Shown: piece by piece, positions 14,633 to 36,147 of the stretch | Layout: the number at the start of each line of letters is the position of its first letter | Numbering within the stretch: the stretch's first letter is position 1 | Source: Devosia sp. 67-54 | Lineage (GTDB): Bacteria > Pseudomonadota > Alphaproteobacteria > Rhizobiales > Devosiaceae | DNA: 64,000 nucleotides | NCBI RefSeq assembly: GCF_001899075.1 | Contig: NZ_MKVA01000011.1 | Location: 496,001 to 560,000 of the forward strand | Direction of reading: 5' to 3' | Program-made: the position numbers and the translations under genes | Notes under the pieces: generated by a model | Seen by the model: only the letters and a program-made list of their open reading frames with translations | Database searches by the model: none | Told to the model about the DNA's origin: nothing

Positions 14633-15385
14633 GTGGCATCAAATCGGCTGGCAGGGCTCAGCGCACTGGTGACTGGTGCGGGCGGCGGTATCGGCGGTGC
14701 CGTCGCGCAGCGGTTCGTGGCCGAAGGCGCCACTGTGATCGGCCTCGATCTCGGCGGGGAAGGAGTGGGGTTTCCCCTGCTGAGCTGCGACGTCCGCGAT
14801 GCCCAGGCGGTGGAACGCGCCGTAGCCGTCGCGGCCGAGCGCAACACCGGTATCGACATCGTGGTGACGGCGGCGGCGCTCACCGGCGGCCGCGCGCTGT
14901 TCCCCGATGTCACCGACGATGAGTGGGATGCCTATCTGGCGGTCAACCTCACCGGCACCTTCCGCGTCTGCCGAGCCGTGGCGCGCGCGATGATCGCGCA
15001 GGGTCGTGGCGGCAGCATCATCACCGTTGGCTCGGTGAACTCCTTGGCGGCCGAGCCGCAGGCGCTGCCCTATGCCTCCTCGAAAGGCGGCATCGCGATC
15101 CTCACCCGCGCGATGGCGGTCGATCTCGCGCCGCACGGCATCCGCGCCAACATGCTGGCGCCGGGGCCCGTCGAGGTGCCTCGCAATGCTTCGCTGTTCC
15201 GCAGCCCCGGGTTCCAACGCGGCTTTAAGCAGATCGTGCCGATGGGGCATGCGGCCGATCCGGCCGACGTCGCCAATGCGGCGGTCTATCTAGCCGAGCC
15301 GGGGTCGAAAATGGTGACCGGCACGACGCTCTTAGTCGACGGCGGCCTAATGGCGCAAATCCCGCCGTTCGATCGCGGCGACTAG
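14633..15385 (+). CDS. SDR family NAD(P)-dependent oxidoreductase
   Basis: A 250-residue classical short-chain dehydrogenase starting with GTG after a GGAGG ribosome site. The cofactor motif is TGAGGGIG (about 16-23). The catalytic Ser lies in VGSVNSLAA, and the Tyr/Lys pair is in YASSKGG. The C-terminal GTTLLVDGGLMAQ is usual for the family. It is the last gene of the operon from 8781 and probably oxidises an alcohol intermediate of the imported compound. Its stop overlaps the end of the convergent LacI gene by four bases. Confidence 0.9.
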   Translation: MASNRLAGLSALVTGAGGGIGGAVAQRFVAEGATVIGLDLGGEGVGFPLLSCDVRDAQAVERAVAVAAERNTGIDIVVTAAALTGGRALFPDVTDDEWDAYLAVNLTGTFRVCRAVARAMIAQGRGGSIITVGSVNSLAAEPQALPYASSKGGIAILTRAMAVDLAPHGIRANMLAPGPVEVPRNASLFRSPGFQRGFKQIVPMGHAADPADVANAAVYLAEPGSKMVTGTTLLVDGGLMAQIPPFDRGD

Positions 15386-16419
15386 CGGACGGTGCGGTTC
15401 TGCACAGAGTTGCGCTGCACCAATGCGCCGGGCAAGACGCTCGAGGCGGGCGCAGGCTCATCGGGATTGCGGCGATTGAGCAGGCGCACCGCAGCCTCTA
15501 CCATCTGGTCGACCGGCTGGGCGAAGGTCGTCAGCTGGTAAGTCGGCCAGGCACCCTGCGGGATGTTGTCGAAGCCGACGACAGAGATGTCCTCCGGCAC
15601 GCGCAGTCCGAGACCGTACCGCAGCGCGTCCATGCCGCCGAGCGCCATGATGTCGTGCGCAAAGAAGATCGAATCTGGCCGCGAGCGCCCGAGCTCCAGC
15701 GCCGCTGCATAGCCACCCTCATAAGTGTATTCGCCGTCGACGCGCCCAAACAGCGGCACACCGGCTTCGGCGAGCTCGGCCTCAAAGCCCTCGGCGCGAG
15801 CATGGGTCGTTGCGGCATCGGGACTGCGGCCAACAAACGCCGGGCGCTTGTGCCCATTCTGCAGCAACAGGCGCGCGACGTCGCGACCGCCCGCCTCGTT
15901 GTCACAGACGACGCTAATCAGATCGATGCCGGGGATGGAGTAGCTGAACAGCAGGGCAGCCCGGCCGGTGTCGGTCCAGCGTCGTGCCATTTCCTGCGAT
16001 ACGGTGCCGGTCATGATGACGATGGCGTCGACGTTGTATTGCAGCAGCAAGTGCAGCTGCGCGTCGATCTGCTGGCCTGACGGGATGCTGGTCAGGAGCG
16101 TCTGCAGGCCCAGCTGCTGCAGGCGGCGCGCCAGCGGCTGCAAGATCGAGGCGTAGAACGGATTGGTCATATTCGCGACGACGATGCCAACAATACCGCT
16201 CCGGTGTGTCGACAGCGAACGAGCGATGACATTCGGCTGGTAGCCGAATTTGCGCGCCGCCTCGAGCACCTTGGCGCGCATCTTTGGCGAGATCGTCGCG
16301 CCGTCGCTGAAGGCGCGCGAAATGGTCGATTGCGAGATGCCGAGTTCCTTGGCGAGCTGCCGGCCGGTGAGGCGATCTGAACCCGATAGGAGGTCGCTGT
16401 CGTCGTCGCCGATGCTCAT
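15382..16419 (-). CDS. LacI family transcriptional regulator (R1)
   Basis: About 345 residues. The N-terminal helix-turn-helix is TGRQLAKELGISQSTISRAF, with the hinge helix PNVIARSL, followed by a periplasmic-binding-protein-like effector domain (IVGIVVANMTNPFY onward). At the positions matching PurR 15, 16 and 55 it has Gln, Ser and Ser. I chose ATG 16419 because AAGGGG lies six bases upstream; an ATG at 16437 falls inside an operator-like site. The surrounding palindromes TGCATCCGGATGCA are its likely targets, including one in its own promoter. The ligand is presumably the compound imported by the neighbouring transporters. Confidence 0.92.
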   Translation of the reverse strand: MSIGDDDSDLLSGSDRLTGRQLAKELGISQSTISRAFSDGATISPKMRAKVLEAARKFGYQPNVIARSLSTHRSGIVGIVVANMTNPFYASILQPLARRLQQLGLQTLLTSIPSGQQIDAQLHLLLQYNVDAIVIMTGTVSQEMARRWTDTGRAALLFSYSIPGIDLISVVCDNEAGGRDVARLLLQNGHKRPAFVGRSPDAATTHARAEGFEAELAEAGVPLFGRVDGEYTYEGGYAAALELGRSRPDSIFFAHDIMALGGMDALRYGLGLRVPEDISVVGFDNIPQGAWPTYQLTTFAQPVDQMVEAAVRLLNRRNPDEPAPASSVLPGALVQRNSVQNRTVR

Positions 16420-16432
16420 ACTCCGCCCCTTA

Positions 16433-16446
16433 TGCATCCCGATGCA
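16433..16446. promoter_or_regulatory. Imperfect R1 operator in front of the R1 gene
   Basis: TGCATCCCGATGCA, one base away from the R1 palindrome, with both half-sites intact and the centre changed from CG to CC. It sits 13 bases upstream of the R1 start, so binding would block its own expression. The altered centre suggests weaker binding and looser autoregulation. Confidence 0.6.
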
Positions 16447-16521
16447 GCATCAGCATTAGCCTAGCGGCAGACAAGCCGCCAAGCATCTTATGGAGGCTAT
16501 CCTAGCAATCTCGAATGCATA

Positions 16522-16539
16522 TTGCATCCGGATGCAATG
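16522..16539. promoter_or_regulatory. LacI-type operator R1 in the divergent promoter
   Basis: Perfect 18-bp palindrome ATTGCATCCGGATGCAAT, the longest R1 site seen, 33 bases before the SelA/DgaE-like gene and 102 bases from the R1 start. A partial half-site (AATGCAT, 16515-16521) lies directly before it. Confidence 0.8.
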
Positions 16540-16572
16540 TTAGGTTTGATGGGTTTGGTATAGAGAGGTCAC

Positions 16573-17760
16573 ATGCCCAAGTTCGATGAAAAAGACCGCG
16601 GCCTGAGACAGGTGATCAACGTCGCCGGCACCATGACGGTGATCGGTGCCTCGAGCGCGCATCCCGAAGCGATGGCCGCCGTTGCCGACATCCTGCCGCG
16701 CTTCGTGTGGATCGACGAGCTGCAGCGCGTCGCCAGCAAAACCATCGCGGGGGCGCTTGGCGCAGAGGCGGGTCTCGTCACCGCCTCGACCAGTGCGGCG
16801 ATCACGCTGTCAATTGCCGCGACCATGACCGGCCTCGATCGTGCGAAGATCGCGCGGCTGCCCGACACGAGTGGTTTGCGCAACGAAGTGGTGATTCTGC
16901 AGGGGCATCTTCTCAACTACGGTGCTCCGATCGACCAGGCCATCCGACTCTCGGGCGCCCGCCTCAAGGCGATAGGGCAGGCAACGTCATCCACGGAGTT
17001 CGAGCTCGAGGCGGCGTTCGGCCCAAACACCACCGCAGCGCTGTACGTCGTATCGCATCACGCGGCGTCATATGGCATGATCCCGCTGTCACGTTTTGCC
17101 GCCATCGCGCACGCGCACGGCGTGCCGGTTATTGTCGATGGAGCTGCCGAGTATAACCTTCGCGGGTTCCTCGCGCAGGGGGCCGACCTCGCGCTTTATT
17201 CGGCACACAAGTTCATGCGAGGGCCGACGGCCGGCATCATCGCCGGGCGCCGCGATCTGGTGCGCGCGATCTATCTCCAGAACGCCGGCATCGGCCGCGG
17301 CTTCAAGGTCGGCAAGGAGAGCATTGCCGGGGCCATCGCGGCGCTCGACGCGTGGGAGCGCACCGACCACGCCGCGACCCGCGCACATGAGAGGTCGCTG
17401 CTCGACCACTGGACCATCGCACTCGCCAACCTTGACGGCGTGACGATCACCGTCGTGCCGGATCCAACGAACAACCCGGTCGACCGGGTGCGGGTCGCCG
17501 TCGATCCGGCACGTGCGGGGACGAGCGCCTGGGACATGAGTTCGGCGCTTGCCGCCGGAACGCCGTCGATAGCCGTGCGGGCCGAGGACCTCGAGCATGG
17601 CTACTTCGAGCTCGATCCCTGCAACCTCGATCTCGAGGAGGCAAGGATCGTGAGCGAGCGCATTGTTGGCGAGCTCGACGCCGCCCGCGCCGGACGGACT
17701 AAGTCCACGCCGTTTGCTGAGTGGCGGTCGCGGCAGGAAGAATCGATCTGGGACATCTAG
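16573..17760 (+). CDS. PLP-dependent enzyme of the SelA/DgaE family
   Basis: A 395-residue fold-type I PLP enzyme. The expected lysine is K213 in YSAHKFMRGPTAG, and the ring-binding Asp is D189 in VIVDGAAEYN. The opening VINVAGTMTVIGAS and the loop SASTSAA-like TASTSAAITLS are typical of the branch holding D-glucosaminate-6-phosphate ammonia-lyase (DgaE) and SelA-like proteins. No selenocysteine genes are nearby, so an ammonia-lyase or similar catabolic role on an amino acid or amino-sugar acid fits better. It follows the R1 operator at 16522 and leads a three-gene operon. Confidence 0.8.
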   Translation: MPKFDEKDRGLRQVINVAGTMTVIGASSAHPEAMAAVADILPRFVWIDELQRVASKTIAGALGAEAGLVTASTSAAITLSIAATMTGLDRAKIARLPDTSGLRNEVVILQGHLLNYGAPIDQAIRLSGARLKAIGQATSSTEFELEAAFGPNTTAALYVVSHHAASYGMIPLSRFAAIAHAHGVPVIVDGAAEYNLRGFLAQGADLALYSAHKFMRGPTAGIIAGRRDLVRAIYLQNAGIGRGFKVGKESIAGAIAALDAWERTDHAATRAHERSLLDHWTIALANLDGVTITVVPDPTNNPVDRVRVAVDPARAGTSAWDMSSALAAGTPSIAVRAEDLEHGYFELDPCNLDLEEARIVSERIVGELDAARAGRTKSTPFAEWRSRQEESIWDI

Positions 17761-17771
17761 GAGAGTTCACA

Positions 17772-18791
17772 GTGCAATCGCGTCCGCCGAGCCGGCTCGT
17801 CACCGAGATCAGCCTCGATGGCCCCGGCAAGCGCCACGGCTATGTGCGCGTGCCGCTGTCGTCGCATGAATCGGCATATGGCTTTGTGCCGGTGCCGGTG
17901 GTGGTGATCTCGGGAGCACCTGGGCCGACGACGGTGCTCACCGCCGGCAACCACGGCGACGAGTACGAGGGCGAGGTGGCGTTGGCGGAGCTGGCGCGAT
18001 CGCTCGATCCGGCCGAGCTCACCGGCCGGCTGATCATCATGCCGACGCTAAACCAGCCGGCGGCAGTTAGGGCGCGACGCACCTCGCCGATCGACGGCGG
18101 CAATCTCAACCGTTCATTCCCCGGCGACGCTGCCGGCAACGTGACGCAGCAGATTGCCTACTACGTTGAAGAGAACATCATTCCATTATGCGATGCCGTT
18201 TGCGACATGCATTCGGGCGGTAGCTCGCTGCACTACGTACCATCAACGGTGATCGCTCGCTGGGCCGACGTGGATAAGTACAAGAAGTCCCTGGCGATGG
18301 TGCGCGCCTTCGGTACCCCCGCTGCCTACGTGCTCGATCAGCCCGACGACACCAACAACACGCTGTTGGGCGCCGCGGGGCGCAAGGGCAAACTGTTCAT
18401 CGGCACCGAGCTTGGCGGCTCAGGCGCGCTCAGCCGCGAGACCATCCGGATCGCGCGCGACGGCCTGCGTGGACTGCTGACCCACCTCGGTCACTTCACC
18501 GGCAAGCAGCAGGGCAAGGGCGCCGGCTTCGACACCCGCATCCTCGATCTTCGCGGCCCCGAATACTACGTCTACGCCGATGACGATGGCGTCTACGAGC
18601 CACTGGCCGAGCTCGGCGACGAGGTGGTCGCCGGCCAGCCGGCGGCGCGCGTGCACGTGCCCGAGAAGCCCTGGGTCGAGCCGCTGACGCTCAGCTTCGC
18701 GCTCTCTGGCATGGTGCTCTGCAAGCGCGCGCCGGCGCGGATACGGCGCGGCGACTGCCTGTTCCACATCGGCACGGACGTGGTCGCCTGA
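17772..18791 (+). CDS. Succinylglutamate desuccinylase/aspartoacylase family deacylase (DoeB-like)
   Basis: A 339-residue zinc carboxypeptidase-fold deacylase. The zinc ligands are H61 and E64 in GNHGDEYEGE and H147 in DMHSGG, with the family arginine motif NLNRSFPG at 111-118. In length and motif layout it resembles DoeB, which removes acetate from N-acetyl-diaminobutyrate in ectoine breakdown, but no ectoine hydrolase is seen here, so I do not assign that reaction. GTG 17772 is chosen because AGGAGAG lies seven bases upstream. It follows the PLP enzyme by 11 bases and overlaps the next start by one base. Confidence 0.82.
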   Translation: MQSRPPSRLVTEISLDGPGKRHGYVRVPLSSHESAYGFVPVPVVVISGAPGPTTVLTAGNHGDEYEGEVALAELARSLDPAELTGRLIIMPTLNQPAAVRARRTSPIDGGNLNRSFPGDAAGNVTQQIAYYVEENIIPLCDAVCDMHSGGSSLHYVPSTVIARWADVDKYKKSLAMVRAFGTPAAYVLDQPDDTNNTLLGAAGRKGKLFIGTELGGSGALSRETIRIARDGLRGLLTHLGHFTGKQQGKGAGFDTRILDLRGPEYYVYADDDGVYEPLAELGDEVVAGQPAARVHVPEKPWVEPLTLSFALSGMVLCKRAPARIRRGDCLFHIGTDVVA

Positions 18792-19528
18792 TGCGGATCG
18801 CCGAGCGCCTGCATCTGGTGATGAGCGGCGGCCTCGGCATGGATCTGACCGATCCGCTCGATTGCAACGTCTATCTGGTCGGCGCCAGCACGGGTTGGCT
18901 TCTGTTCGACGCCGGCGCCGGCCGCAGCGTCGACGCGGCACTAGAGGCAATGCCCGCGGAGGGCATCGATCCGGCCAGCATCACCACCCTGTTCCTCACT
19001 CACGGCCACGCCGATCATTCGGCGGGCGCGGCCCGGATGCGCGAGCGGCTCGGGCTCAAGGTCATCGCCGGAGCGGCCACGGCGGCAATGGTGGCGAGCG
19101 GCGACGAGGATGCGATCAGCCTCACCGCGGCGCGCGAGGCCGGTGGGTATCCGGCCGACTATGCGTATCGCGCGTGCCCTGTTGGCCAGATCATTGCGGA
19201 TGGCGACACGCAGCGCATCGGCGACACCAGGGTCACCGCTATCGCCACGCCCGGCCACAGCCACGATCACCTGGCGTTCCTCATCGAGCAGCCTGGCCGC
19301 AGGGTGCTGGTCGCGGGCGACGCGCTGTTCCACGGCGGTCGGGTAGGAGTGCAGAACGTCTACGATTGCAGCGTGCCCGAGATCTGCCGTTCGGTGCGAC
19401 GGCTCGCTGGCTTCGACTACGAGATCTTCCTGCCGGGGCACGGGCCGTTCTCGCTGCGCGATGGCCGCCGTCACGCCGATGCGGCGATGGAGCATGTGCG
19501 GCGCAACGCCTGTCCGCCGTCGATCTAG
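18791..19528 (+). CDS. MBL-fold metallo-hydrolase
   Basis: A 245-residue metallo-beta-lactamase-fold protein. The metal motif THGHADH (70-76) is complete, a further His is in ATPGHSHDH, and the later ligands lie in VAGDALFHGG (Asp) and PGHGP (His). It has the general hydrolase look of glyoxalase II or quorum-lactonase relatives, so a thioester or lactone is a possible substrate. Its ATG overlaps the deacylase stop (TGATG), so the two are translated together. Confidence 0.85.
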   Translation: MRIAERLHLVMSGGLGMDLTDPLDCNVYLVGASTGWLLFDAGAGRSVDAALEAMPAEGIDPASITTLFLTHGHADHSAGAARMRERLGLKVIAGAATAAMVASGDEDAISLTAAREAGGYPADYAYRACPVGQIIADGDTQRIGDTRVTAIATPGHSHDHLAFLIEQPGRRVLVAGDALFHGGRVGVQNVYDCSVPEICRSVRRLAGFDYEIFLPGHGPFSLRDGRRHADAAMEHVRRNACPPSI

Positions 19529-20547
19529 AGGTAGGGCTGGTAGCCGAACTCGCCGCTGCGGGCGAACAGCCCCGGTAGCCCGCCGGTGTGCACGAACACG
19601 ACGCTGTCGTGCTGTTGGAAATCGCCCCGACGGATCGCCGCGATCATCCCGGCCGCGCCTTTGCCGGTGTAGGTCGGCTCGAGCAGGATGCCTTCTGTGC
19701 GGGCGAAGAGCTCTATCGCTTCCTTGACCGGGGCGGCGATCGGCGAGGTCGTCGCGTGGTAGCTCGCATCGATGCCGAAATCCGTGTCCGAGATGCGGCG
19801 GTCGACGCCGAGCATCGCGGCGCATTTGTTGGCGTAGTCGAGCACGTGCCGCAACACGTCGTCGCGGGACGAGCCCACCGAGACGCCGGTGATCCCGAAG
19901 CTCGCGCCGTGTGCGCGGCAGCCGAGCACCAGGCCGGCGGTGGTTGGGCCGGCTCCGGTGGCGATGAACACGTGCTTGGGCTTGAGCTGCATGGCCTCGA
20001 ACTGGCAGAGCAGTTCCTCGGCGCCAGCGACGTAGGACGCCGTTCCGATCGTGCCAGTGCGTTCCGGGTGATAGATCATGAATGGCTTGTAGCCGCGGCG
20101 CGCCGCGTCGTCGCAGAGCCGCTGTAAGACGTCTTTGATCGCGGGATCGAGCCGTTCGGGGATCGGCGTGGTATGCACTTCGGCGCCGAGCAGTTCGAAC
20201 AGGAAGCGGTTGCCAACCATCGCCGTCGGCGTGGTCACTGCATGCAGCAGCAGGATCGGCTTCATGCCGAGCTTGTTGGCGCCGGCCGCGAGCTCACGCA
20301 GTTTGTTGGATTGTTCGCCCGCCATGGCAACGACCGCTGTTGCGCCTTCGGCCTTGGCCTGGCCCAGCACGAATTCGAAGATGCGCGTCTTGCTGCCGCC
20401 CACCGACAGGCCCGAGAGGTCGTCGCGCTTGATGTAGATATTTGGCCCGCCCAGCGCCTTGCTCAGGTTCGGCGCGGCTTCGAGCGGCGTCGGGAAGTTG
20501 CCGAGCTCGGCGCGGGGCAGTCTTGCAGTGAGCGAGGTCGAGGACAT
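19525..20547 (-). CDS. D-cysteine desulfhydrase/ACC deaminase family PLP enzyme
   Basis: A 340-residue fold-type II PLP enzyme. The Schiff-base lysine is K53 in LSVGGSKTR after IKRDDL, followed by AMAGEQSNKLRELA; the phosphate loop is ATGAGPTTAGL, and HTGGLPGLF closes the protein. These are the marks of the DcyD/AcdS group. Members eliminate H2S or ammonia from D-cysteine, ACC or related D-amino acids. It lies five bases after the RidA-like gene, so its enamine product could be handled directly by that partner. The pair reads away from the R1 operators at 21128-21164. Confidence 0.85.
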   Translation of the reverse strand: MSSTSLTARLPRAELGNFPTPLEAAPNLSKALGGPNIYIKRDDLSGLSVGGSKTRIFEFVLGQAKAEGATAVVAMAGEQSNKLRELAAGANKLGMKPILLLHAVTTPTAMVGNRFLFELLGAEVHTTPIPERLDPAIKDVLQRLCDDAARRGYKPFMIYHPERTGTIGTASYVAGAEELLCQFEAMQLKPKHVFIATGAGPTTAGLVLGCRAHGASFGITGVSVGSSRDDVLRHVLDYANKCAAMLGVDRRISDTDFGIDASYHATTSPIAAPVKEAIELFARTEGILLEPTYTGKGAAGMIAAIRRGDFQQHDSVVFVHTGGLPGLFARSGEFGYQPYL

Positions 20548-20552
20548 GATGG

Positions 20553-21053
20553 CTAGCGTACCGCGATGACGGCTTCGATTTCGACAGTGATCAGACGCGG
20601 CAGGGAACCGACGCCCATGGCGGTGCGCGAATGCTGGCCGGCTTCGCCGAACACCTCGCAGAAGAGGTCGGAACAGCCGTCGATCACCGCCGAATGGTCG
20701 GCGAAATCGGCTGTGGCGTTGACCATGCCGAAAATCTTGACGACACGACGCACCCGCCTGAGATCGCCGAGCACATCGTGCATCACCGACAGGAGGTTCA
20801 GCCCGGTCAGGCGCGCGTGGCGATACGCCTCCTGCGCGCTTACCGCATCGCCAACCTTGCCGATATGCAACGTGCCATCCTCGCGTGTCGGCCCCTGGCC
20901 CGACAGGAAGACGATGTCGCCATCCTGGACGGCGGTGCGGAAGTTTGCGATCGGCGTCGGGGGAGGGGGCAGTTCCAGCCCAAGCGCGGCCAAACGCTGG
21001 TAGGGATCCGGGTCCCGGTGTCGATCGTCGGCCTGGGGCGTCAAGGGCTTCAT
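20553..21053 (-). CDS. RidA-like protein (YjgF family)
   Basis: A 166-residue member of the RidA superfamily, longer at the N terminus than the archetype. It shows VFLSGQGPTREDG near the start of the domain and the C-terminal AMGVGSLPRLITVEIEAV, which keeps the Arg and Glu used for enamine binding. ATG 21053 is chosen because upstream sequence in frame covers the operator pair and has no coding character. It is first in a two-gene operon with the PLP lyase at 19525 and sits directly downstream of tandem R1 operators. Confidence 0.85.
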   Translation of the reverse strand: MKPLTPQADDRHRDPDPYQRLAALGLELPPPPTPIANFRTAVQDGDIVFLSGQGPTREDGTLHIGKVGDAVSAQEAYRHARLTGLNLLSVMHDVLGDLRRVRRVVKIFGMVNATADFADHSAVIDGCSDLFCEVFGEAGQHSRTAMGVGSLPRLITVEIEAVIAVR

Positions 21054-21127
21054 GATTAATCCAAAGTTTGGCAGAAGAGGCGAGATAGCCAGAAATGGCG
21101 ATTGCCTACGCTGCATCTTTAGCCACC

Positions 21128-21143
21128 TTGCATCCGGATGCAA
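21128..21143. promoter_or_regulatory. LacI-type operator R1, upstream of the RidA-lyase operon
   Basis: Perfect 16-bp palindrome TTGCATCCGGATGCAA, 75 bases upstream of the RidA-like start at 21053. First of a tandem pair. Confidence 0.8.
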
Positions 21144-21150
21144 CATGTTC

Positions 21151-21164
21151 TGCATCCGGATGCA
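21151..21164. promoter_or_regulatory. LacI-type operator R1, second copy of the pair
   Basis: Perfect 14-bp palindrome TGCATCCGGATGCA, centred 22 bp from the previous copy. On the other side lies the truncated amidotransferase gene, so the pair may once have controlled a divergent promoter. Confidence 0.78.
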
Positions 21165-21225
21165 ATATTTCGAAAGGCGGCGTTGTGTCGAGGAACAAGG
21201 CTGTCCTACCCGCTGGCGAAATGGC

Positions 21226-21825
21226 ACCAAGGTCAACGGCGCTGAGCAATTCATCGCCGCCTTGAACGAGGGCGGGTACGCGGTGACGCAACTCTCGGTG
21301 GACGAGCGTGGCGAGCACTTCCCGCTCAGCATAGCAGAGATGGTCCGCTATGACGCTCTCGTTCTTTCCGACGTCGGGGCGCTCTCCCTGCTCCTGACGC
21401 CGAGTGCGCGAGGGGGACACCTAGGCACCGATCGCCTGCAGATGTTGAGCGACTGGGTGGCGACCGGCGGCGGCCTTGTCATGGCCGGCGGCTATATGAG
21501 CTTCCAGGGCATGGAAGGATTGGCCCGCTATTTCGAGACGCCGATAGACGACTGTCTTCCGGTCGGGTGCCGCCCAAACTCGGATGGCCTCGAAGCGCCA
21601 GCCGGCCTCGTGCCGTTGGTCCTCAAGCCCCACCATCCCGTCCTCAGGGGCATCGGAACCAGCTGGCCTTCTCTACTCGGGATGAACAAGACCGAGTATC
21701 GAAATGGCGTCAGCGATTTTCAGATCATCGCCGAATGCACGCATCTAGCCCGAGGGTCCCGAGGTGCGGGGCAAGATTCGGTACTATTCGCGCTTCCAGA
21801 GCCTTCGACTCTGGTCCGAGAATGA
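21226..21825 (+). pseudogene. Glutamine-amidotransferase-like protein, truncated at both ends
   Basis: The frame reads VNGAEQFIAALNEGGYAV, then YDALVLSDVGA, TGGGLVMAGGYMSF and HPVLRGIGTSWP, the order found in an uncharacterised class I amidotransferase-like family. Members normally have about 35 further residues at the N terminus and a C-terminal section after the last motif. Here the upstream in-frame sequence is non-coding and crosses the R1 operator pair, while past about 21745 the recognisable fold gives way to unrelated sequence before the stop. I read it as the remains of a gene once divergent from the RidA-lyase operon. A short living protein cannot be excluded. Confidence 0.6.
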
Positions 21826-28724: not shown

Positions 28725-29891
28725 TCATGGCCGATGCGGATCGGTATCGGGCAGGTCCTGCAGCTGAGCGAGCTTGATCTGGGTCAGCAGGCTCAATTCG
28801 TCGTAGACGTTCCATTCGTCGACGATCTGGCCATCCTTGATGTGGAAATGGGTCATGCCCATCACCTGCAGGCGCTTGCCGGTGGGCTCGCCCAGCGATT
28901 CCAGGATGCCGTAGCCCAGATGGTGCCCCTCGATGATCCAGCGCACGGCGACCTTGGTGCCGCCTTCCTCGCTGTCGTTCGAGCAGACGTGCTGCACGAA
29001 ATATCCCGCATCCGGGATCGATCCGACGAGGCCCAGATGCTGGTGCGTCACCGCGGCGACGCCGTAGAGCTCCTTCATCAGCGGCCCGTGATACTGCACC
29101 GTCGGCGCGTAGACGTCCTTGATCTTGCCGAACATGCGTTTGTTGAAAATCTCGTGCAGCCAGCGCAGCACGTCGGCCTCGAGTGTGGTGTTGGCGAGCG
29201 AAACGTCGGCCTCCCATTCCGGCGGGTTCTGGCCGAGGAGGCGGCGGTTTTCCCCGATATCGAGCGACGTCAGTCCGGCGTCGAATTTCGACTTCGCCGT
29301 GCGCATCGCGAAGGCGTGCGGATCGAGTCCGAGCTGCCGGACGATGGCCATGTTGTCGGCAACCACCCACTCCCGGTAAATCTTGTTGCGCAGTACCATG
29401 CAGTCGGCGATCGTGCGCGAGACGAACGGCCGCCCGGTCGGCGCGCCGAAATGGCCGAATTGCGTGTGCCGGCCGGATCCAGTGACGAGGTGCGAGGTGT
29501 AGAACCCATCCTTGTCGTTGCCGTTCCAGATGACCTGCGTAGCCATGCCGCGCCGTTCCGGAAAGCTCACCAGGCGCTGGATGGTGTCGCGGACCACGTC
29601 CTCGCGATTGTAGATCGTGCCGGTGGTGCCGTAGAGCACGCAATTGTGCGTGTAGTGGGTGTAGATCAGGCCGATGTCGCGCTCGTCCCAGATCTTGTGC
29701 GTGCAGCGCACGATGTAGTCGACGATATCGGTGTAGATATCGTCGAAGCCGTCGAGCGACTGGCTGCGTGGACGGTCGGTGGGCGCGAGTTCGGGGTAGT
29801 CGCGGCGCTCCACCTGCAGCACCTGCTCCTTCGGCGTGTCGATGCGGGCGATGCGGGCCTTGCCGCCTTTGTCGTTGTCAGCGTCGCTCAT
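28725..29891 (-). CDS. Double SnoaL-like (NTF2-fold) protein, possible ester cyclase
   Basis: A 388-residue protein that appears to contain two NTF2-like domains. The first runs about 40-190 (DIYTDIVDYIVRCTHKIWDE, NCVLYGTTGTIYNREDVVRD); the second about 230-380 and ends with the typical TTHFHIKDGQIVDEW-like stretch MTHFHIKDGQIVDEWNVYDE. Proteins of this fold include SnoaL cyclases, dehydratases and many of unknown use. ATG 29891 is chosen because its first four bases overlap the hydrolase stop, giving coupled translation. Substrate unknown. Confidence 0.78.
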   Translation of the reverse strand: MSDADNDKGGKARIARIDTPKEQVLQVERRDYPELAPTDRPRSQSLDGFDDIYTDIVDYIVRCTHKIWDERDIGLIYTHYTHNCVLYGTTGTIYNREDVVRDTIQRLVSFPERRGMATQVIWNGNDKDGFYTSHLVTGSGRHTQFGHFGAPTGRPFVSRTIADCMVLRNKIYREWVVADNMAIVRQLGLDPHAFAMRTAKSKFDAGLTSLDIGENRRLLGQNPPEWEADVSLANTTLEADVLRWLHEIFNKRMFGKIKDVYAPTVQYHGPLMKELYGVAAVTHQHLGLVGSIPDAGYFVQHVCSNDSEEGGTKVAVRWIIEGHHLGYGILESLGEPTGKRLQVMGMTHFHIKDGQIVDEWNVYDELSLLTQIKLAQLQDLPDTDPHRP

Positions 29892-30586
29892 GATGGCTCC
29901 TTTGCGCAAGACCGGACCGGCATGGCGAGCCATGCCGCAAGTTCGTCGGCGACCCTGCCGGGTCGCTCGAGGGGAAGGTAGTGGCCGGCCCCCGGCACGA
30001 TGGCGAGGCAGGCCCCAGGGACGGCGTCGGCGATGGCGCGGCTCATCGCTGGTGGACAGGTCCGATCACACGCGCCGCACAGGACCAGCGTTGGAACGTC
30101 GATCCGGGCGAGGCGTGGCCGGCTGTCGCTGCGCTCCAGCGTCATGCGTGTCTGCTGCCGATAGGCGCCGGCATCCGTCTCGCGCGCCATCGCCTGCACC
30201 AGCGGTCCGTCCGTCGCATCGGCGAACTCGCTTTGCCGCAGCGCCGCGCGGGAAGCGCGCGCTGTGTCGTCCAGCACGCCGGGGTTGCAAGCTATCAGCG
30301 CCAGCCGCTCGATCCTTTCGGGCGCCAGCGCGATCATTTCGAGCGCCACGATGGCGCCGAGCGAAAAGCCGCAGAGTGAGATGCGCGACGACGCCTCCGT
30401 GAGGAGGCGCTCCGCCATCGCCGTCGTGCTGTCGGCACCGGCGAGCAGAGGCACCCGCGCCAGCACCTGTAGCCGCTCCAGAACGCCGGCGTAGAGCCGG
30501 CCGTCACACAGCGTGCCGGGCAGCATCAGCAGCGGCGCCGGCATGGCGTCGACAAATGTTCGCGGAGGCTGCGGACGATGGAGCAT
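29888..30586 (-). CDS. Alpha/beta hydrolase
   Basis: About 232 residues with the nucleophile elbow CGFSLGAIV (Ser), an Asp-bearing VLCGACDRTCPP loop and the catalytic His in PGAGHYLPLERP, so the triad looks complete. The early LLMLPGTLCDGRLY gives the oxyanion-hole strand. No signal peptide. ATG 30586 is preferred (MLHRPQPP); in-frame codons extend to 30625. It is translationally coupled to the SnoaL-like gene, and the pair may act on one ester or lactone substrate. Confidence 0.82.
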   Translation of the reverse strand: MLHRPQPPRTFVDAMPAPLLMLPGTLCDGRLYAGVLERLQVLARVPLLAGADSTTAMAERLLTEASSRISLCGFSLGAIVALEMIALAPERIERLALIACNPGVLDDTARASRAALRQSEFADATDGPLVQAMARETDAGAYRQQTRMTLERSDSRPRLARIDVPTLVLCGACDRTCPPAMSRAIADAVPGACLAIVPGAGHYLPLERPGRVADELAAWLAMPVRSCAKEPS

Positions 30587-30708
30587 GGACCTGATCTTAG
30601 CGTCTCGTGACGGCAGCCGCGGCATCGATCGAAACTATGGTGAGCGACGCTCGGCTCGCCGCGCCACATGGCGAAGGCGATCTTCACGCAGAAACTTCTG
30701 GCAAATTC

Positions 30709-30722
30709 TGCATACGTATGCA
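30709..30722. promoter_or_regulatory. LacI-type operator R2 before the first HisD-like gene
   Basis: Perfect 14-bp palindrome TGCATACGTATGCA with a central CpG, 57 bases upstream of the HisD-like start at 30780. It differs from the R1 palindrome only two bases from the centre. Confidence 0.78.
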
Positions 30723-30779
30723 AGAGGGAATGTGCCGTGGCTCCAGCAGCGGGCCGCAAAGCTATTTCGAGGTTCCCCG

Positions 30780-32066
30780 ATGTCCGATTCTACCCGCGCC
30801 CCGAACGGCGTGAGCTATGTCAAAGCCCCGTCGCGCGATCAGGTCAGCGACAACAAGCCGGTCGAGACCCTGGTCGCCGAAATCCTCAAGAACGTGCGCG
30901 AGCGCGGCGACGCCGCGGTGCGCGAATATTCCGAGAAGTTCGACAACGCGACGGTGAACGCTTTCGAAGTGACCGATGCTGAGCGGGAAGAGGCGCTGCG
31001 CGGGCTCGCGCCGCAGACCCGGCAGGACACCGAATTTGCCATCGCCAATGTGCGCAGATTTGCCGAGGCGCAGCTCGGCACCATCCTGCCGCTGGAGATC
31101 GAGACTCTGCCGGGCGTCCATCTGGGCCACCGCGTCATCCCGATCGAGCGGGTCGGGTGCTACGTGCCCGGCGGCCGCTATCCGCTGCTGTCGGCGCCGA
31201 TCATGACCATCGTGCCGGCCAAGGTCGCCGGCGTCGACGAGGTGATCGCCTGCCTGCCGCCCAATGCCCACAAGGCGATGATCGCCGGCTGCCATTTGAG
31301 CGGCGCCGACCGCATCTTCCGGATCGGCGGCGCGCAGGCCATCGCAGCGCTCGCCTACGGCACCGAGAGCGTGCCGGCGGTCAACAAGGTCGTGGGACCG
31401 GGCAATGCCTTCGTCAACGAAGCCAAGCGCCAGGTGTTCGGCCCGGTGGGCATCGACCAACTCGCCGGCCCCTCCGAGATTTTCGTCGTCGCCGACCGCA
31501 CCGGCGATGCCGAGATGATCGCGACGGACCTGCTGGCGCAGGCCGAGCACGATGTGCGCACGCGTGTCGGCCTCATCACCACCGACCGTGCGCTCGCCGA
31601 GGCGACACTCAAGGAAGTCGAGCGGCAGCTCGCGACGCTTTCGACCGCCAGCGTCGCCGGCGTGGCATGGAAGGACTACGGCGAGATCGCCGTCTGCCCG
31701 GACGAGGCGACAATGATCGCCTATTCCGACTACATCGCCGCGGAGCACCTGCAGGTCCACACCGCCGACCCGCAGGCGATGGCCAAAAAGCTGCGCAATT
31801 ACGGCTCGCTATTCATCGGCCAGCTCGCGAGCGTGGTCTATTCGGACAAATGCATCGGCACCAATCACACGCTGCCGACCATGGGCGCCGGCCGCTACAC
31901 CGGCGGCCTCTGGGTCGGCGCCTATGTGAAGATCGCCACCCATCAGTGGATCGACGAGCGAGGCGTGCGCGCCGTGGCGCCGCCGGCGGCGCGCCAGAGC
32001 GCCAGCGAGACGCTGGAAGGGCATCGCCATGCGGCGCAGCTTCGCTTGGACCGCCTGCAGGCGTGA
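30780..32066 (+). CDS. HisD-like dehydrogenase, copy 1 (catabolic)
   Basis: A 428-residue homologue of histidinol dehydrogenase of normal length. HisD landmarks are [15 protein letters not shown] (125-139), GPGNAFVNEAKRQVFG (206-221) and DQLAGPSE. Zinc ligands by alignment are Q254 and H257 in LLAQAEHD, D356 in YSDK and H415 near the end; the catalytic pair is E322/H323. No other histidine genes are near, an R2 operator sits in front, and a second intact copy lies at 36900, so it most likely oxidises another primary alcohol to a carboxylate with two NAD+, as sulfopropanediol dehydrogenase HpsN does. ATG 30780 opens the conserved part; upstream codons cross the operator. Confidence 0.88.
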   Translation: MSDSTRAPNGVSYVKAPSRDQVSDNKPVETLVAEILKNVRERGDAAVREYSEKFDNATVNAFEVTDAEREEALRGLAPQTRQDTEFAIANVRRFAEAQLGTILPLEIETLPGVHLGHRVIPIERVGCYVPGGRYPLLSAPIMTIVPAKVAGVDEVIACLPPNAHKAMIAGCHLSGADRIFRIGGAQAIAALAYGTESVPAVNKVVGPGNAFVNEAKRQVFGPVGIDQLAGPSEIFVVADRTGDAEMIATDLLAQAEHDVRTRVGLITTDRALAEATLKEVERQLATLSTASVAGVAWKDYGEIAVCPDEATMIAYSDYIAAEHLQVHTADPQAMAKKLRNYGSLFIGQLASVVYSDKCIGTNHTLPTMGAGRYTGGLWVGAYVKIATHQWIDERGVRAVAPPAARQSASETLEGHRHAAQLRLDRLQA

Positions 32067-32124
32067 CGACGTCCCGGGCCAGCCGTCATCGCCGCGTCCG
32101 TGGGGATGACACGCGGGCGTCATG

Positions 32125-32823
32125 CTATTTGATCTGGTCGGCTTCGCGCCAGGCCGCGCGCAGCTTCTCGATGTTGAACCCCGGCGCCCGTGCCGCCTTG
32201 AGGATCGGCTGCTCCTTGCGCAGCACGATGTCGATGGCGGCGGGCATTGTCTCAATATGCTCGGCCGGGATCACCACCGCCCCGTGTCGGTCGGCATGGA
32301 TCAGCTCGTTGGGACGCACGGTCATGCCGAACACCGTGACGGTGCAGTCGAGCTCGGTGACGTGCACGAACGCATGGCTTGGCCCGATGGAGCCGGCGAT
32401 CACCTGATAGCCCGCATCCAGCATGCCGAGGTCGCGCAGCACGCCGTTCGTCAGCGTGCCGGCGACGCCCAGCCCCTTGTGCTGCGCCACCTGCATCTCG
32501 CCCCAGAAGCCGCCGATGCAGCGCGGCCAGTCGGTGTCCTCGATCACGGCGACATTCGGTCCCGCGCCGCCGGCCACGTGCTCGTAATAGGCCATGCGCA
32601 GCGCCCGCACCTCGGCTGCCGGCCGCTGCGCCGGCGACGAGGCCCGTATGCGGGCCGTCCGGGCGAAGCCGACGATGGGCGGCAGCGCTGGATCGGCGCA
32701 GACCACGGGGGCTTTGGTGAAGCCCTCGGCGGTGCGACCGCCCATCACATGTTCGAGCGCGTTGCAGATGGTCGGCGTATCGTGCCGGCGCAGGATCGCC
32801 AGTGTTTCCGGGGTGATGGACAT
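32125..32823 (-). CDS. RraA/HMG-aldolase family protein
   Basis: A 232-residue member of the family often misnamed dimethylmenaquinone methyltransferase, which includes 4-hydroxy-4-methyl-2-oxoglutarate aldolase and RNase E inhibitor RraA. The active-site segment is GTLTNGVLRDLGMLDAG, with the metal-site Arg-Asp pair, preceded by GGFWGEMQVAQHKG. The N-terminal DTPTICNALE is typical. Given its place after the MetE-like gene (two bases), an aldolase or decarboxylase step in a catabolic pathway is likelier than RNA regulation. Last gene of the cupin operon. Confidence 0.85.
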   Translation of the reverse strand: MSITPETLAILRRHDTPTICNALEHVMGGRTAEGFTKAPVVCADPALPPIVGFARTARIRASSPAQRPAAEVRALRMAYYEHVAGGAGPNVAVIEDTDWPRCIGGFWGEMQVAQHKGLGVAGTLTNGVLRDLGMLDAGYQVIAGSIGPSHAFVHVTELDCTVTVFGMTVRPNELIHADRHGAVVIPAEHIETMPAAIDIVLRKEQPILKAARAPGFNIEKLRAAWREADQIK

Positions 32824-32825
32824 GC

Positions 32826-33962
32826 TCAGCTCAGCTTCAGGCGGTCGTTGACGAGATTGGTGCCGTCGCGCAGCGATTTGAGCTTCAGCCAGACGATGTC
32901 GGGGTCGACCGTGCCGAAGCCGGCAAAGGTCGAAAAGCCGCAATCGGTGCCGGCGATCACACGGTCGGGGCCGACGATGTTGACGAAGTTCATCAGTCGC
33001 TCGGCGATGAGTTCCGGATGCTCCACGAAATTGGTGGTCGAGTCGAGCATGCCGGGGATCAGCACGTAGTCATCCGGCAGCTCGACCGATTTCCAGTCGA
33101 TCCACTCATGCGCGTGGCGCGGGTTCATCGCCTCGAACAGCAGCGCCCGCGGTTTGGCCTTGAGGATGGCCGGCAGCACCGTCTTGAGCGCGATGTCGCA
33201 ATTGTGCGGGCCTTCGTAATTGCCCCAGCAGACATGCATGCGCACCTTGTCGCCCGGGATGTTGCGCAGCGCATGGTTGAGCACCTCGATGTGGCGCTCG
33301 GCGCGGCGGACGAAGCCGGCGTCGTCGAGCTCCTTGTACATCATGTGCCGGCCGAGCCCAAGATCGGGACTGTCGAGCTGGAGGATCAATCCGGCGGCGA
33401 CGATGCCCTCATATTCGGCACGCATGGCTTCGGCGACGGCTTCGAGATAGTCGTCTTGCGTCGTGTAGAACTCGTTGGGCTGAAACAGCGCGATGACCCC
33501 CGGTGTCGCCGAGTTCATGAAGCCCTTGGCATAGCCGCTGCTTTTGAGCGCCGACTGGAAATTGTCGATGTCCTCGCGCAGCGGCTGTAGCGTCTTGACG
33601 GCGATTTCGCCGATGCATTTGGGGCGCCGGTAGGTCGGCGTGCCGCCGCCCTTGGCCTGCCGCTCGAGAAAGCCGGGCACCTGTTCGAGGTCCTGCGGTG
33701 GCCGGCGTGCGCTGTCGCCGGCAAAGCCTGTGAGGCGATCCTTGATGTAGGTGGCGTAGGAGATCTTGCTCATCTCGCCGTCGGACGGCAGGTCGACGCC
33801 CGCCGCCTTTTGCCGTGCCACGATATCGGCGACGGCCTCGCCGACGATGCGGTTGAAGCCGGCTTCATCGATGGGCACACCGGCCTCGCGCGCGAACACG
33901 AGGTCGGTGATCTGTTTGCTGCGGGGCAGGGACCCCACATGCGTTGTCAGGATACGTGCCAT
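32826..33962 (-). CDS. Short MetE-like (cobalamin-independent methionine synthase C-terminal) protein
   Basis: A 378-residue stand-alone version of the MetE catalytic barrel. The start THVGSLPR and the zinc ligands H243 and C245 (RMHVCWGNYEG), E277 (LFEAMNPRH) and C341 (GTDCGFSTF) are all present, so it should bind zinc and activate a thiol. It lacks the N-terminal half of MetE. Relatives include methylcobalamin:CoM methyltransferases and epoxyalkane:CoM transferase, so the role may be thiol-linked C-S or methyl chemistry on the imported substrate. Its ATG overlaps the cupin stop by one base (TAATG). Confidence 0.85.
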   Translation of the reverse strand: MARILTTHVGSLPRSKQITDLVFAREAGVPIDEAGFNRIVGEAVADIVARQKAAGVDLPSDGEMSKISYATYIKDRLTGFAGDSARRPPQDLEQVPGFLERQAKGGGTPTYRRPKCIGEIAVKTLQPLREDIDNFQSALKSSGYAKGFMNSATPGVIALFQPNEFYTTQDDYLEAVAEAMRAEYEGIVAAGLILQLDSPDLGLGRHMMYKELDDAGFVRRAERHIEVLNHALRNIPGDKVRMHVCWGNYEGPHNCDIALKTVLPAILKAKPRALLFEAMNPRHAHEWIDWKSVELPDDYVLIPGMLDSTTNFVEHPELIAERLMNFVNIVGPDRVIAGTDCGFSTFAGFGTVDPDIVWLKLKSLRDGTNLVNDRLKLS

Positions 33963-35002
33963 TATTCGGCCGCCACGCGGCGTTCGGCGAAGGCCGGGGC
34001 GGCGGGCGCCGACGCACCGCGCACCACGAAGGCGATCGCGTCGGCGGAGGCGGGGTTGCGATAGGCGTGCATCAGTCCCACCGGCACCGTCAGCGTGTCG
34101 CCGGCGCCCATCACCAGCCGGCCGCCGTCCCACGAGAATTCGAGCGTGCCCGACTGCATGAAGATCACTTCCTGCTCGGCGCGCGAATGCATCGGGATGC
34201 TGGCGCCGGTCTCGAGCTTCAGGCGGCGCAGGGCAAAGCCGTGGTCCCAATGGCCGATGATCGGGCCGGCCTTGAAGCCGTCCCGGGAGTCGATGTCGCC
34301 GATCACCGCGTCTTCCTCAACGCCGGGCCCGGCGAGAGGCGAGTTCGGGTTGCCCGTCATGGCCGCCGCCTTGAGGGCATATTTGCTGAGCTCGCTCATC
34401 GGGGGCGTCGCCAGCTCCTTGAGCTTGGCGGCATCGGGCGGCTGCTCCATCTCGGCGCCCTCCGGCACCGTTTCGCCCAGCGTCGTGTCGATCAGCTTGC
34501 CGCCCTTCAGCAGCTTCAGGCCGAAATCCTCGGCCATCTTGAACACCGACGGCGCCCAGACCACCTTGCCTGGATCGTCATGGCCAAGCACGACGGCGAG
34601 AAATCCCGTGCCTTCGTCGCGCTTTTCGAAGCCGCGGAACATGTGCGTCGGCACGCTCGCGACGTCGCCAGGTTCGACGTCGAGATAACCCTCGTCCTTG
34701 TTGGCGCCGAAGACGAAGCGCCACTTGCCGGTGTGCACCAGGAAGGTCTCGGCGGTCAGATGCGAGTGCTGCGAATTGGTGCAGCCGAAGGGTTGCCGCG
34801 CCGCACCGAAATTGAAGCCGTGTGCCTCGGGAATATGCACCACCTGCGCCGGGTTCTCGGAAACGCCCGGCCCGATGATGGTGAAATTCTCCTTGCGATC
34901 GGACCCGGGCGTGCGCGCATCGATGAAGGCGTTGCGCAGCCCCTTGAGGTCGGCGTAGCGGACCAGCCGCTTTTCCATCGCCTCCTGCGTCCATTTGCTC
35001 AT
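33962..35002 (-). CDS. Bicupin-domain protein
   Basis: A 346-residue protein with two cupin domains. Domain 1 (about 70-160) has QHSHLTAETFLVHTGKWRF with later PGDVASVPTHMFRG; domain 2 (about 245-325) has PMHSRAEQEVIFMQSGTLEF with PVGLMHAYRNP. His/Glu ligands for one metal can be seen in each. The two-domain plan is shared by gentisate-type dioxygenases and sugar isomerases, but I cannot place it in either. ATG 35002 begins the operon cupin-MetE-RraA, 24 bases from the R2 operator at 35026. Confidence 0.8.
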   Translation of the reverse strand: MSKWTQEAMEKRLVRYADLKGLRNAFIDARTPGSDRKENFTIIGPGVSENPAQVVHIPEAHGFNFGAARQPFGCTNSQHSHLTAETFLVHTGKWRFVFGANKDEGYLDVEPGDVASVPTHMFRGFEKRDEGTGFLAVVLGHDDPGKVVWAPSVFKMAEDFGLKLLKGGKLIDTTLGETVPEGAEMEQPPDAAKLKELATPPMSELSKYALKAAAMTGNPNSPLAGPGVEEDAVIGDIDSRDGFKAGPIIGHWDHGFALRRLKLETGASIPMHSRAEQEVIFMQSGTLEFSWDGGRLVMGAGDTLTVPVGLMHAYRNPASADAIAFVVRGASAPAAPAFAERRVAAE

Positions 35003-35025
35003 GTCGAAACTCCTTTCACAGCCTT

Positions 35026-35039
35026 TGCATTCGTATGCA
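35026..35039. promoter_or_regulatory. LacI-type operator R2 before the cupin operon
   Basis: TGCATTCGTATGCA, the R2 palindrome with one arm carrying T instead of A two bases from the centre. It sits 24 bases upstream of the cupin start on the minus strand and also lies 29 bases past the end of the R2 regulator gene. Confidence 0.75.
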
Positions 35040-35067
35040 CAGCGCGCGCTGCCCAAAGCCGATCGGC

Positions 35068-36147
35068 TCAGCGCGTGGCGGCAGATTTGTAGAATTTCAC
35101 TCCATCGCGCTCGACGATGCCTGTCTTGGGCAGGCGGGCGGAGGTGCGCACGATGAGCTCGCCCGGGATGACCCGGTGCTGCGGCTCGATCTCGCCGGAG
35201 GCGATCTGGTCCATCAGGATGTCGACGGTCGCTTCCGCCATCGGCATGATCGGCTGCGTCACCGAGGTGATGCCGTAGCTTGGCCAGCGGGCCGGGCCGA
35301 CATCGTCATAGCCCACGATCGACAGGTCCTTGGGAATCGTGAGGCCGAATTCGTAGCGGGCGACGTCCATCACGGCGACGGCCATATGGTCGTTGGCGAC
35401 GAAGATCGCCTGCGGGCGTTTGGGCAGCGACAGCAGCTCCCGAGCCGCCGCTTCGGCGTCGGCGCGGTTGTAATTGCCGGTCCTGACCTCGATCTTGCTG
35501 AAGCCGCCGGCCTTCAGGCCCTCGCGGAAGCCGATGAGCCGATCGCGATTGGTCGACGAGTTCTCCAGCCCCGAAATGTAGCCGAAGCTCTTGTGCCCGC
35601 CGGCGATGAGAAATTCGGCAAGCAGCCGCCCGCCTTCGCGGTTGCGTGTCGTGACCGACGAAGCCGCGGCCTTCTCTGTTGTGCGATTGAACAGCACCAC
35701 TGGAATGCCCGCGACGGTGCATTCTTCCGACAGCTGCGAACTCAGCGAGGTCGAGGCAAGGATGATGCCATCGACCCGGTACTGCATCAGTTGGTCGAAC
35801 ACCGGATCGGAATCGCGGTCCATGAAGCCGGTGAACAGCAGCACATGGTAGTTCTCGGCGGCGAGGCGGCGGCCGAGTTCCTCCAGCACGTCCGGGTAGA
35901 ACAGATTTTCGAGATACGCCATCACCACCGCGATGATGCGCGAGCGCGAGGTGATCAGCGAGCGAGCGATGGCATTGGGGCGGTAGCCCAGCTCCTTGGC
36001 GGCAGCCAGCACCTTGGCGCGCGTCTTCGGTGAAATAGAGGCGCCGGGCGTGAAGGTGCGCGACACCGCCGACTGCGACACGCCAGCATGCTCGGCAACC
36101 TGCGACGAGGTCACGGAAGGCTTCTTGGTGATTATTCCGCCGTCCAT
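35068..36147 (-). CDS. LacI family transcriptional regulator (R2)
   Basis: A 359-residue regulator with helix-turn-helix SSQVAEHAGVSQSAVSRTF, hinge PNAIARSL and an effector domain beginning RIIAVVMAYLENLFY. At the positions matching PurR 15, 16 and 55 it has Gln, Ser and Ile, whereas R1 has Gln, Ser and Ser. The likely targets are the palindromes at 30709, 35026, 38253, 44298 and 44322. ATG 36147 is chosen; it lies inside the end of the SDR gene, a 16-base overlap, so R2 is made from the HisD-SDR-LacI transcript and is probably autoregulated through the 38253 operator. Confidence 0.9.
   Translation of the reverse strand: MDGGIITKKPSVTSSQVAEHAGVSQSAVSRTFTPGASISPKTRAKVLAAAKELGYRPNAIARSLITSRSRIIAVVMAYLENLFYPDVLEELGRRLAAENYHVLLFTGFMDRDSDPVFDQLMQYRVDGIILASTSLSSQLSEECTVAGIPVVLFNRTTEKAAASSVTTRNREGGRLLAEFLIAGGHKSFGYISGLENSSTNRDRLIGFREGLKAGGFSKIEVRTGNYNRADAEAAARELLSLPKRPQAIFVANDHMAVAVMDVARYEFGLTIPKDLSIVGYDDVGPARWPSYGITSVTQPIMPMAEATVDILMDQIASGEIEPQHRVIPGELIVRTSARLPKTGIVERDGVKFYKSAATR

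What the first reader, a model, noticed from the sequence alone, without database searches (positions are those of the whole stretch)
15382..36147. Two LacI paralogues and their operators appear to have co-diverged at one specificity position
R1 and R2 sites share TGCAT arms and the central CG and differ only at the second base from the centre (C in R1; A or T in R2). The two regulators have the same residues (Gln, Ser) at the positions matching PurR 15 and 16, but Ser versus Ile at the position matching PurR 55. LacI-family recognition studies name 15, 16 and 55 as the main specificity residues, with 55 acting near the operator centre. The pattern is what two insulated regulons would show after duplication.
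Basis: partly seen in the sequence, partly recalled or inferred. Interest (0 to 1): 0.85.

Follow-up and report, generated by a model that had tools for sequence, protein, structure and literature searches.

The report
Two repressors with matched operator variants
Two anciently related DNA-binding repressors sit side by side in one bacterial genome, each next to sites that differ from the other's by one base pair per half, and comparison with relatives links that base to one hinge residue acting together with a second residue, which refines a known recognition pattern.

Summary
The 4.21-Mb genome holds ten perfect TGCATNCGNATGCA palindromes, all in this window: five with C/G at the second base from the centre (NT-2) in the cluster of regulator R1, five with A/T in the cluster of R2. 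In 21 genomes of the same family, pure C/C and pure A/T palindromes occur only where the matching regulator type occurs. Residues 15/16 are Gln-Ser in both; residue 55 is Ser in R1 and Ile in R2, as claimed.

R1 and R2 are 37% identical and fall in separate well-supported clades: two old lineages side by side, not a recent duplicate. Natural exchanges in relatives suggest that 55 gates A-T against G-C (Ile55: 96 of 104 half-sites A/T, whatever stands at 5), while Ser/Thr55 goes with C beside Arg5 or Tyr5 but not beside Trp5 or Phe5. Independent changes are too few for significance on the tree, and nothing was tested at the bench. A new member of a known kind; a testable refinement of a published correlation.

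The parts
15382..16419 (-). R1, LacI-family regulator (Arg5, Gln15, Ser16, Ser55); the frame also has an ATG at 16437, but the ATG at 16419 has the better ribosome-binding-like stretch before it
   Evidence: Pfam LacI and Peripla_BP_3 above gathering scores; residues; starts
35068..36147 (-). R2, LacI-family regulator (Ser5, Gln15, Ser16, Ile55)
   Evidence: Pfam LacI and Peripla_BP_3 above gathering scores; residues
8683..8719 (.). Two R1-type operators TGCATCCGGATGCA, 23 bp apart, before the M81/MlrC-like frame (start unsure, ATG 8757 likely)
16433..16446 (.). Imperfect R1-type operator TGCATCCCGATGCA in the R1 leader
16523..16536 (.). R1-type operator between R1 and the divergent DgaE-like gene (ATG 16573)
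21129..21164 (.). Two R1-type operators, 22 bp apart, between the RidA-like gene (ATG 21053, minus) and the GATase1-like gene (start unsure)
30709..30722 (.). R2-type operator TGCATACGTATGCA before the first histidinol dehydrogenase-like gene (ATG 30780)
35026..35039 (.). R2-type operator TGCATTCGTATGCA between R2 and the cupin gene (ATG 35002)
38254..38267 (.). R2-type operator TGCATACGTATGCA at the head of the same-strand row HisD-like, SDR, R2 (HisD-like ATG 38225)
44299..44335 (.). Two R2-type operators, 23 bp apart, before the ABC substrate-binding protein gene (ATG 44156)
8757..15385 (+). R1 cluster, first row: M81/MlrC-like protein, ABC importer genes, SDR
16573..21825 (.). R1 cluster, second part: DgaE-like, AstE/DoeB-like, MBL-fold (plus strand), CuyA/ACC deaminase-like and RidA-like (minus), GATase1-like (plus)
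30780..44156 (.). R2 cluster: two histidinol dehydrogenase-like proteins, RraA-like, MetE-like, cupin, R2, SDR, amidase, ABC importer

Best explanation
R1 and R2 are two local, self-regulating LacI-family repressors of separate transport and catabolic clusters. Both read the same outer half-site (TGCAT) through Gln15-Ser16 and Arg20, and both have Leu54 at the central CG step. They are told apart at NT-2, the second base from the centre. Residue 55 of the hinge helix gates that base pair: Ile favours A-T in either orientation, Ser, Thr or Ala admits G-C. Residue 5, at the start of the DNA-binding domain, is a second determinant: among Gln15-Ser16 regulators, C was seen only beside Arg5 or Tyr5. 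Shown: sites, residues, linkage to the clusters, co-occurrence across genomes. Inferred: binding, repression, which groove each residue reads, and absence of cross-talk. The two modules are old separate lineages that now lie side by side, perhaps because the R1 module was acquired (inference).
For: Ten perfect sites, all in the two clusters and nowhere else in the genome; R1 and R2 are the only Gln15-Ser16 LacI-type regulators among 29 matches. In 21 family genomes, C/C palindromes occur in exactly the 4 with an R1-type regulator and A/T palindromes in exactly the 9 with an Ile55 R2 orthologue. Half-sites of 37 Gln15-Ser16 regulators with a strict linked site, of 44 examined: Ile55 (24 regulators) A 66, T 30, G 7, C 1; Ser55 (8) C 30, A 4, G 2; Thr55 (3) C 6, A 2, G 1, T 1; Ala55 (1) G 3, A 1; Val55 (1) A 3; all 37 C half-sites are beside Arg5 or Tyr5. 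Exchanges with residue 5 held: Arg5 with Ser/Thr55 goes with C, Arg5 with Ile55 (an Ile15-Ser16 relative) with A in 4 of 4 half-sites; Tyr5 with Ser55 goes with C 4 of 4, Tyr5 with Ile55 with T 3, C 1. Camas et al. 2010 report NT-2 correlated with residues 55, 15 and 5, in decreasing order.
Against: The regulators are kin: only 2-3 independent pairs on the tree, too few for p < 0.05, and the grouping of Arg with Tyr was made after seeing the data. Of 61 columns of the DNA-binding domain none separates C-type from other regulators fully; columns 7 and 11 nearly do so as well as 5 and 55. Outside the Gln-Ser class the rule for residue 5 fails: own-genome L010 (Asp5, Arg15, Ser16, Ser55) has C at TGCAACCGGTTGCA, L069 (Lys5, Ile15, Ser16, Thr55) has A and C, Arg5 with Ile55 has A, not T. 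In the wider family Val55 can go with G. No binding data.
Confidence: 0.6

Rival explanations
1. One reading: residue 55 alone sets NT-2 (Ser gives C, Ile gives A/T), the outcome of duplication and divergence of one regulator.
For: Ile55 goes with A/T in 96 of 104 half-sites and Ser55 with C in 30 of 36; Arg5 with Ile55 goes with A and Tyr5 with Ile55 mostly with T.
Against: Ser55 with Trp5 goes with A; Thr55 goes with C beside Arg5 but with A, G or T beside Phe5; Ser to Thr in the R1 orthologue leaves the site unchanged. R1 and R2 are not close kin.
Confidence: 0.2
2. Residues 5 and 55 are markers of clades; the determinant lies elsewhere in the domain (for example columns 7 or 11) or in how the domain sits on DNA.
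For: Few independent changes; columns 7 and 11 nearly separate the two types too.
Against: L047 (Tyr5, Val7, Ala11, Ser55) goes with C although its columns 7 and 11 are those of the A/T types; 5 and 55 are the positions named from an independent data set.
Confidence: 0.15
3. The two site types are not insulated: both proteins bind both, and the base at NT-2 only tunes affinity.
For: One base pair per half differs; relatives hold mixed sites such as TGCATACGGATGCA (R1 type, L169) and TGCATGCGTATGCA (R2 type, L173). No binding was measured.
Against: Pure C/C and pure A/T palindromes follow the regulator type in the 21 family genomes, including G369, where both types exist in separate places.
Confidence: 0.2

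Closest known systems
LacI-family recognition code of Camas, Alm and Poyatos 2010 (PMC2978694; abstract and Results/Discussion read)
   Same: Residues 15/16 read NT-5/NT-4, Arg20 goes with G at NT-6, Leu54 with the central CG, and NT-2 correlates with residues 55, 15 and 5.
   Different: The published code is for the dominant TVSR group; R1 reads TISR and R2 AVSR at 17-20. The rule for NT-2 was left open there; here Gln15-Ser16 relatives suggest one. Their supplementary tables were not read.
Purine repressor PurR, role of residue 55 at NT-2 (cited by Camas et al. as demonstrated; the original paper was not seen)
   Same: Hinge residue 55 affects the base next to the central step.
   Different: PurR has Lys55 and Thr15-Thr16; no natural pair with the same reading head.
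LacI-family regulon comparison of Ravcheev et al. 2014 (PMC4052901; passages seen)
   Same: Even palindromes with central CG, local regulation, paralogues that change motif after duplication (AglR/ThuR, CelR/AscG).
   Different: Those are near neighbours on the tree; R1 and R2 are not. No TGCAT regulon of this kind appeared in the passages seen.
Simulated divergence of a duplicated lac repressor-operator pair (PMC1464816; search listing only)
   Same: How a repressor and its operator can diverge together.
   Different: A computation on lac mutants, not a natural pair.

Membership tests
LacI family of transcription factors | LacI helix-turn-helix plus sugar-binding-protein-like domain | tested here: met
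   PF00356 and PF13377 above gathering scores in R1 and R2
LacI family of transcription factors | Even palindromic operators with central CG near the regulator gene | tested here: met
   Ten perfect sites in the two clusters
LacI family of transcription factors | DNA binding relieved or strengthened by a small ligand | not testable with these tools
   No bench data; ligands unknown
NT-2 correlation with residue 55 (Camas et al.) | Residue 55 differs where NT-2 differs | tested here: met
   Ser55 with C, Ile55 with A/T in the window; counts over 37 regulators
NT-2 correlation with residue 55 (Camas et al.) | Residue 55 alone predicts NT-2 among relatives with the same residues 15/16 | tested here: not met
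   Ser55 with Trp5 goes with A; Thr55 goes with C, A, G or T depending on residue 5
Insulated paralogue pair after a recent duplication | The two proteins are each other's nearest relatives | tested here: not met
   37% identity; separate supported groups of 9 and 33 rows
Insulated paralogue pair after a recent duplication | No cross-binding | not testable with these tools
   Needs binding assays

The most novel reading that the evidence does not exclude
A two-residue code for NT-2 in Gln15-Ser16 LacI regulators: residue 55 gates A-T against G-C, probably through the minor groove, and residue 5 chooses the strand, probably through the major groove (Arg or Tyr giving the pyrimidine). The R1 lineage changed both residues together from an Ile55 ancestor: its nearest relative on the tree, L182 (Glu5-Ile55), has sites with A, T and G but no C.
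Probability: 0.3. Interest if true: 0.6.

Novelty: new member of a known kind. Interest (0 to 1): 0.45.

Why it matters
The base next to the central step is the part of the LacI recognition code that the 2010 study left unresolved. With the outer readout fixed as Gln-Ser, these alphaproteobacterial regulators offer natural exchanges at 55 with residue 5 held (Arg, Tyr) and at 5 with residue 55 held (Ser, Thr). The rule for NT-2 thus becomes testable with a handful of constructs, and would help in building repressors that do not cross-talk. It also shows two old regulators with the same reading head living side by side on operators that differ by one base pair per half.

Tried and rejected
Chance palindromes: rejected. 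A longer operator with six bases between TGCAT arms: no excess over shuffles. Recent duplication: rejected. Residue 17 (Thr in R1, Ala in R2) as the determinant: rejected, since L062, L063, L064 and L066 have Ala17 and C sites. Arg5 alone as the determinant, my own idea after the first relatives: rejected when Arg5 with Ile55 proved to go with A. 'Arg or Tyr at 5 means a pyrimidine' as a family-wide rule: not upheld outside the Gln-Ser class. A viral-contig scan with R1 found no relative. Paper searches for a LacI and histidinol dehydrogenase TGCAT regulon (0 papers) and for lac repressor contacts by residue name (8 papers, none on lac repressor) gave nothing usable.

Rows left out of the count: it examined 44 regulators that I chose because they had, or might have, sites in the stretches held; 7 of the 44 had no strict site. 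Other Gln15-Ser16 regulators with no strict site in their short loci were never entered, among them eight loci with Leu or Lys at 55 (L142, L143, L146-L149, L154, L155), L075, L076, L081, L091, L095, L098, L101, L103, L109 and L110, L159, and L267-L269 and L271-L274. Sites that differ at NT-5 (TGAATGCGCATTCA type, Phe5 with Thr55) and one-mismatch sites were kept out. G087 has 5 perfect sites in all; I located 3 of them and found no strict one in a further 18 kb. Gene distances printed rest on search anchors of which several are not start codons; one search replaces them.
Full report
What is there. The window holds two LacI-family genes, R1 (15382-16419, minus) and R2 (35068-36147, minus). Both match the LacI helix-turn-helix and the sugar-binding-protein-like domain of Pfam above the gathering scores. 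Each sits in a cluster of transport and catabolic genes. R1: M81/MlrC-like protein, ABC importer, SDR, DgaE-like lyase, AstE/DoeB-like deacylase, MBL-fold protein, CuyA/ACC deaminase-like protein, RidA-like and GATase1-like proteins. R2: two histidinol dehydrogenase-like proteins, RraA-like, MetE-like and cupin proteins, SDR, amidase, ABC importer. Among the NCBIfam matches only histidinol dehydrogenase and one UgpC-type ATPase pass their curated cut-offs, so the other names are leads. The substrates are not known.

The sites. Ten perfect TGCATNCGNATGCA palindromes lie in the window and none elsewhere in the 4.21-Mb genome; the reversed control pattern has none. Five are CC/GG and lie in the R1 cluster, five have A or T and lie in the R2 cluster. 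With the start codons listed, each lies in a gap before a gene start, although the starts of the M81-like and GATase1-like genes are unsure. The sites at 16523 and (imperfect) 16433 lie between R1 and its divergent neighbour; the site at 38254 heads a same-strand row of three genes that ends in R2. Both regulators therefore look self-regulating.

Residues. On an alignment with PurR both have Gln15, Ser16, Arg20 and Leu54; residue 55 is Ser in R1 and Ile in R2. The same alignment shows Arg5 in R1 and Ser5 in R2. This matters because Camas et al. 2010 (abstract and Results/Discussion read) tie NT-2 to residues 55, 15 and 5, in decreasing order, and leave the rule open.

Which regulator goes with which site. 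Of the 29 LacI-like matches in this genome only R1 and R2 have Gln15-Ser16. In 21 genomes of the family (20 relatives and the own genome), TGCATCCGGATGCA occurs in 4, exactly the 4 with an R1-type regulator at E <= 1e-70 (G000, G259, G369, G381). Palindromes with A or T on both sides occur in 9, exactly the 9 with an Ile55 R2 orthologue (G000, G005, G179, G222, G291, G305, G319, G332, G369). G056 has an R2-side regulator with Ala55 and, beside it, sites rich in G; four more mixed sites with G lie elsewhere in its genome without a regulator in the stretches held. Mixed sites occur in G179, G259, G319 and G332. Of the 9 genomes with neither regulator at that threshold, 8 have no site and G202 has one G-type site (and one match to the control pattern). 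In G369 the two types lie about 0.9 Mb apart, each with its own regulator.

Kinship. R1 and R2 are 37% identical. On a tree of 69 regulators built without the DNA-binding domain, R1 falls in a group of 9 (support 99/91) and R2 in a group of 33 (100/97). Among 397 genomes of the order the only other R1-like protein above 70% identity is in G087, of another family, at 75%; eleven proteins of the R1 cluster lie around it at 60-85% identity, with three CC/GG sites. The R1-type regulators of G369, G259 and G230 have mostly other neighbours. R2 has 78-82% orthologues in eight other family genomes; the one such cluster compared, that of G369, is syntenic. The plain reading is two old modules side by side, perhaps after transfer of the R1 module (inference).

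The test of residues 55 and 5. I counted NT-2 in strict sites (GCATNCGNATGC) linked to a single Gln15-Ser16 regulator: 44 regulators examined, 37 with a site, 157 half-sites. Ile55 (24 regulators): A 66, T 30, G 7, C 1. Ser55 (8): C 30, A 4, G 2. Thr55 (3): C 6, A 2, G 1, T 1. Ala55 (1): G 3, A 1. Val55 (1): A 3. All 37 C half-sites belong to regulators with Arg5 or Tyr5. The Ile55 regulators bear ten different residues at position 5. Exchanges with one residue held: Arg5 with Ser55 or Thr55 goes with C, and Arg5 with Ile55 (L065, a relative with Ile15-Ser16, the only LacI regulator in its 18-kb stretch) goes with A in two TGCAAACGTTTGCA sites; Tyr5 with Ser55 goes with C (4 of 4), Tyr5 with Ile55 with T 3, C 1; Ser55 with Trp5 goes with A (2 of 2); Thr55 with Phe5 goes with A, G or T. 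R1's own orthologue shows that Ser and Thr at 55 are exchangeable without change of site.

Limits. The regulators are kin. On the tree only 2-3 independent pairs differ at either residue and the sign test cannot reach 0.05. The Fisher values (1e-5 for small residue at 55 against G-C; 3.6e-7 for Arg/Tyr5 against C; 3.6e-4 for small residue at 55 against C; 32 rows) are inflated by kinship, and the Arg with Tyr grouping was made after seeing the data. By that measure residue 5 predicts C better than residue 55 does. Columns 7 and 11 also nearly separate the types. Outside the Gln-Ser class the rule for residue 5 breaks: L010 of the own genome (Asp5, Arg15-Ser16, Ser55) has C; L069 (Lys5, Ile15-Ser16, Thr55) has A and C; L160 (Ala5, Arg15-Ser16, Ser55) has G and A; Arg5 with Ile55 has A rather than T. 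In a wider sample of 80 loci Lys55 and Arg55 mostly go with A or T, Ala55 with G, and Val55 of several actinobacteria with G. No structure with DNA could be examined; the groove assignments are inference.

Verdict. The result is a new pair within a known kind of system and a sharper, testable form of a published correlation. Of the paper searches made none listed a paper that states this rule in its title or the start of its abstract, but the supplementary tables of Camas et al. and the RegPrecise data were not read, so priority is not claimed.

Noticed in passing
8683/8706, 21129/21151, 44299/44322; L167 3161/3184; L169 7103/7126; L172 5179/5203; L185 3839/3865; L183 296/322: Operators come in tandem pairs 22-26 bp apart (start to start) in both regulons and in relatives, about two helical turns, which would suit two dimers side by side on one face of the DNA.
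   Followed up: partly
7522-8619, minus strand: A broken third histidinol dehydrogenase-like copy: pieces 57-77% identical to the R2-cluster protein lie in different frames, just across from the paired R1 operators at 8683/8706.
   Followed up: partly
L170 7741-9027; L278 10634-11998; window 30780-32066 and 36900-38225: Histidinol dehydrogenase-like genes recur beside this group of LacI regulators, in R1-type (G381, 66% identical), R2-type and Arg5-Ile55 (G224) clusters.
   Followed up: no
L010, 2591 in the locus: A third regulator of the own genome (Asp5, Arg15, Ser16, Ser55) has TGCAACCGGTTGCA before it: Ser55 with C at NT-2 in another reading head.
   Followed up: no
16437 against 16419: The imperfect operator at 16433 overlaps the first ATG of the R1 frame; the ATG at 16419, with AAGGGGCGGAG before it, is the likelier start.
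   Followed up: partly
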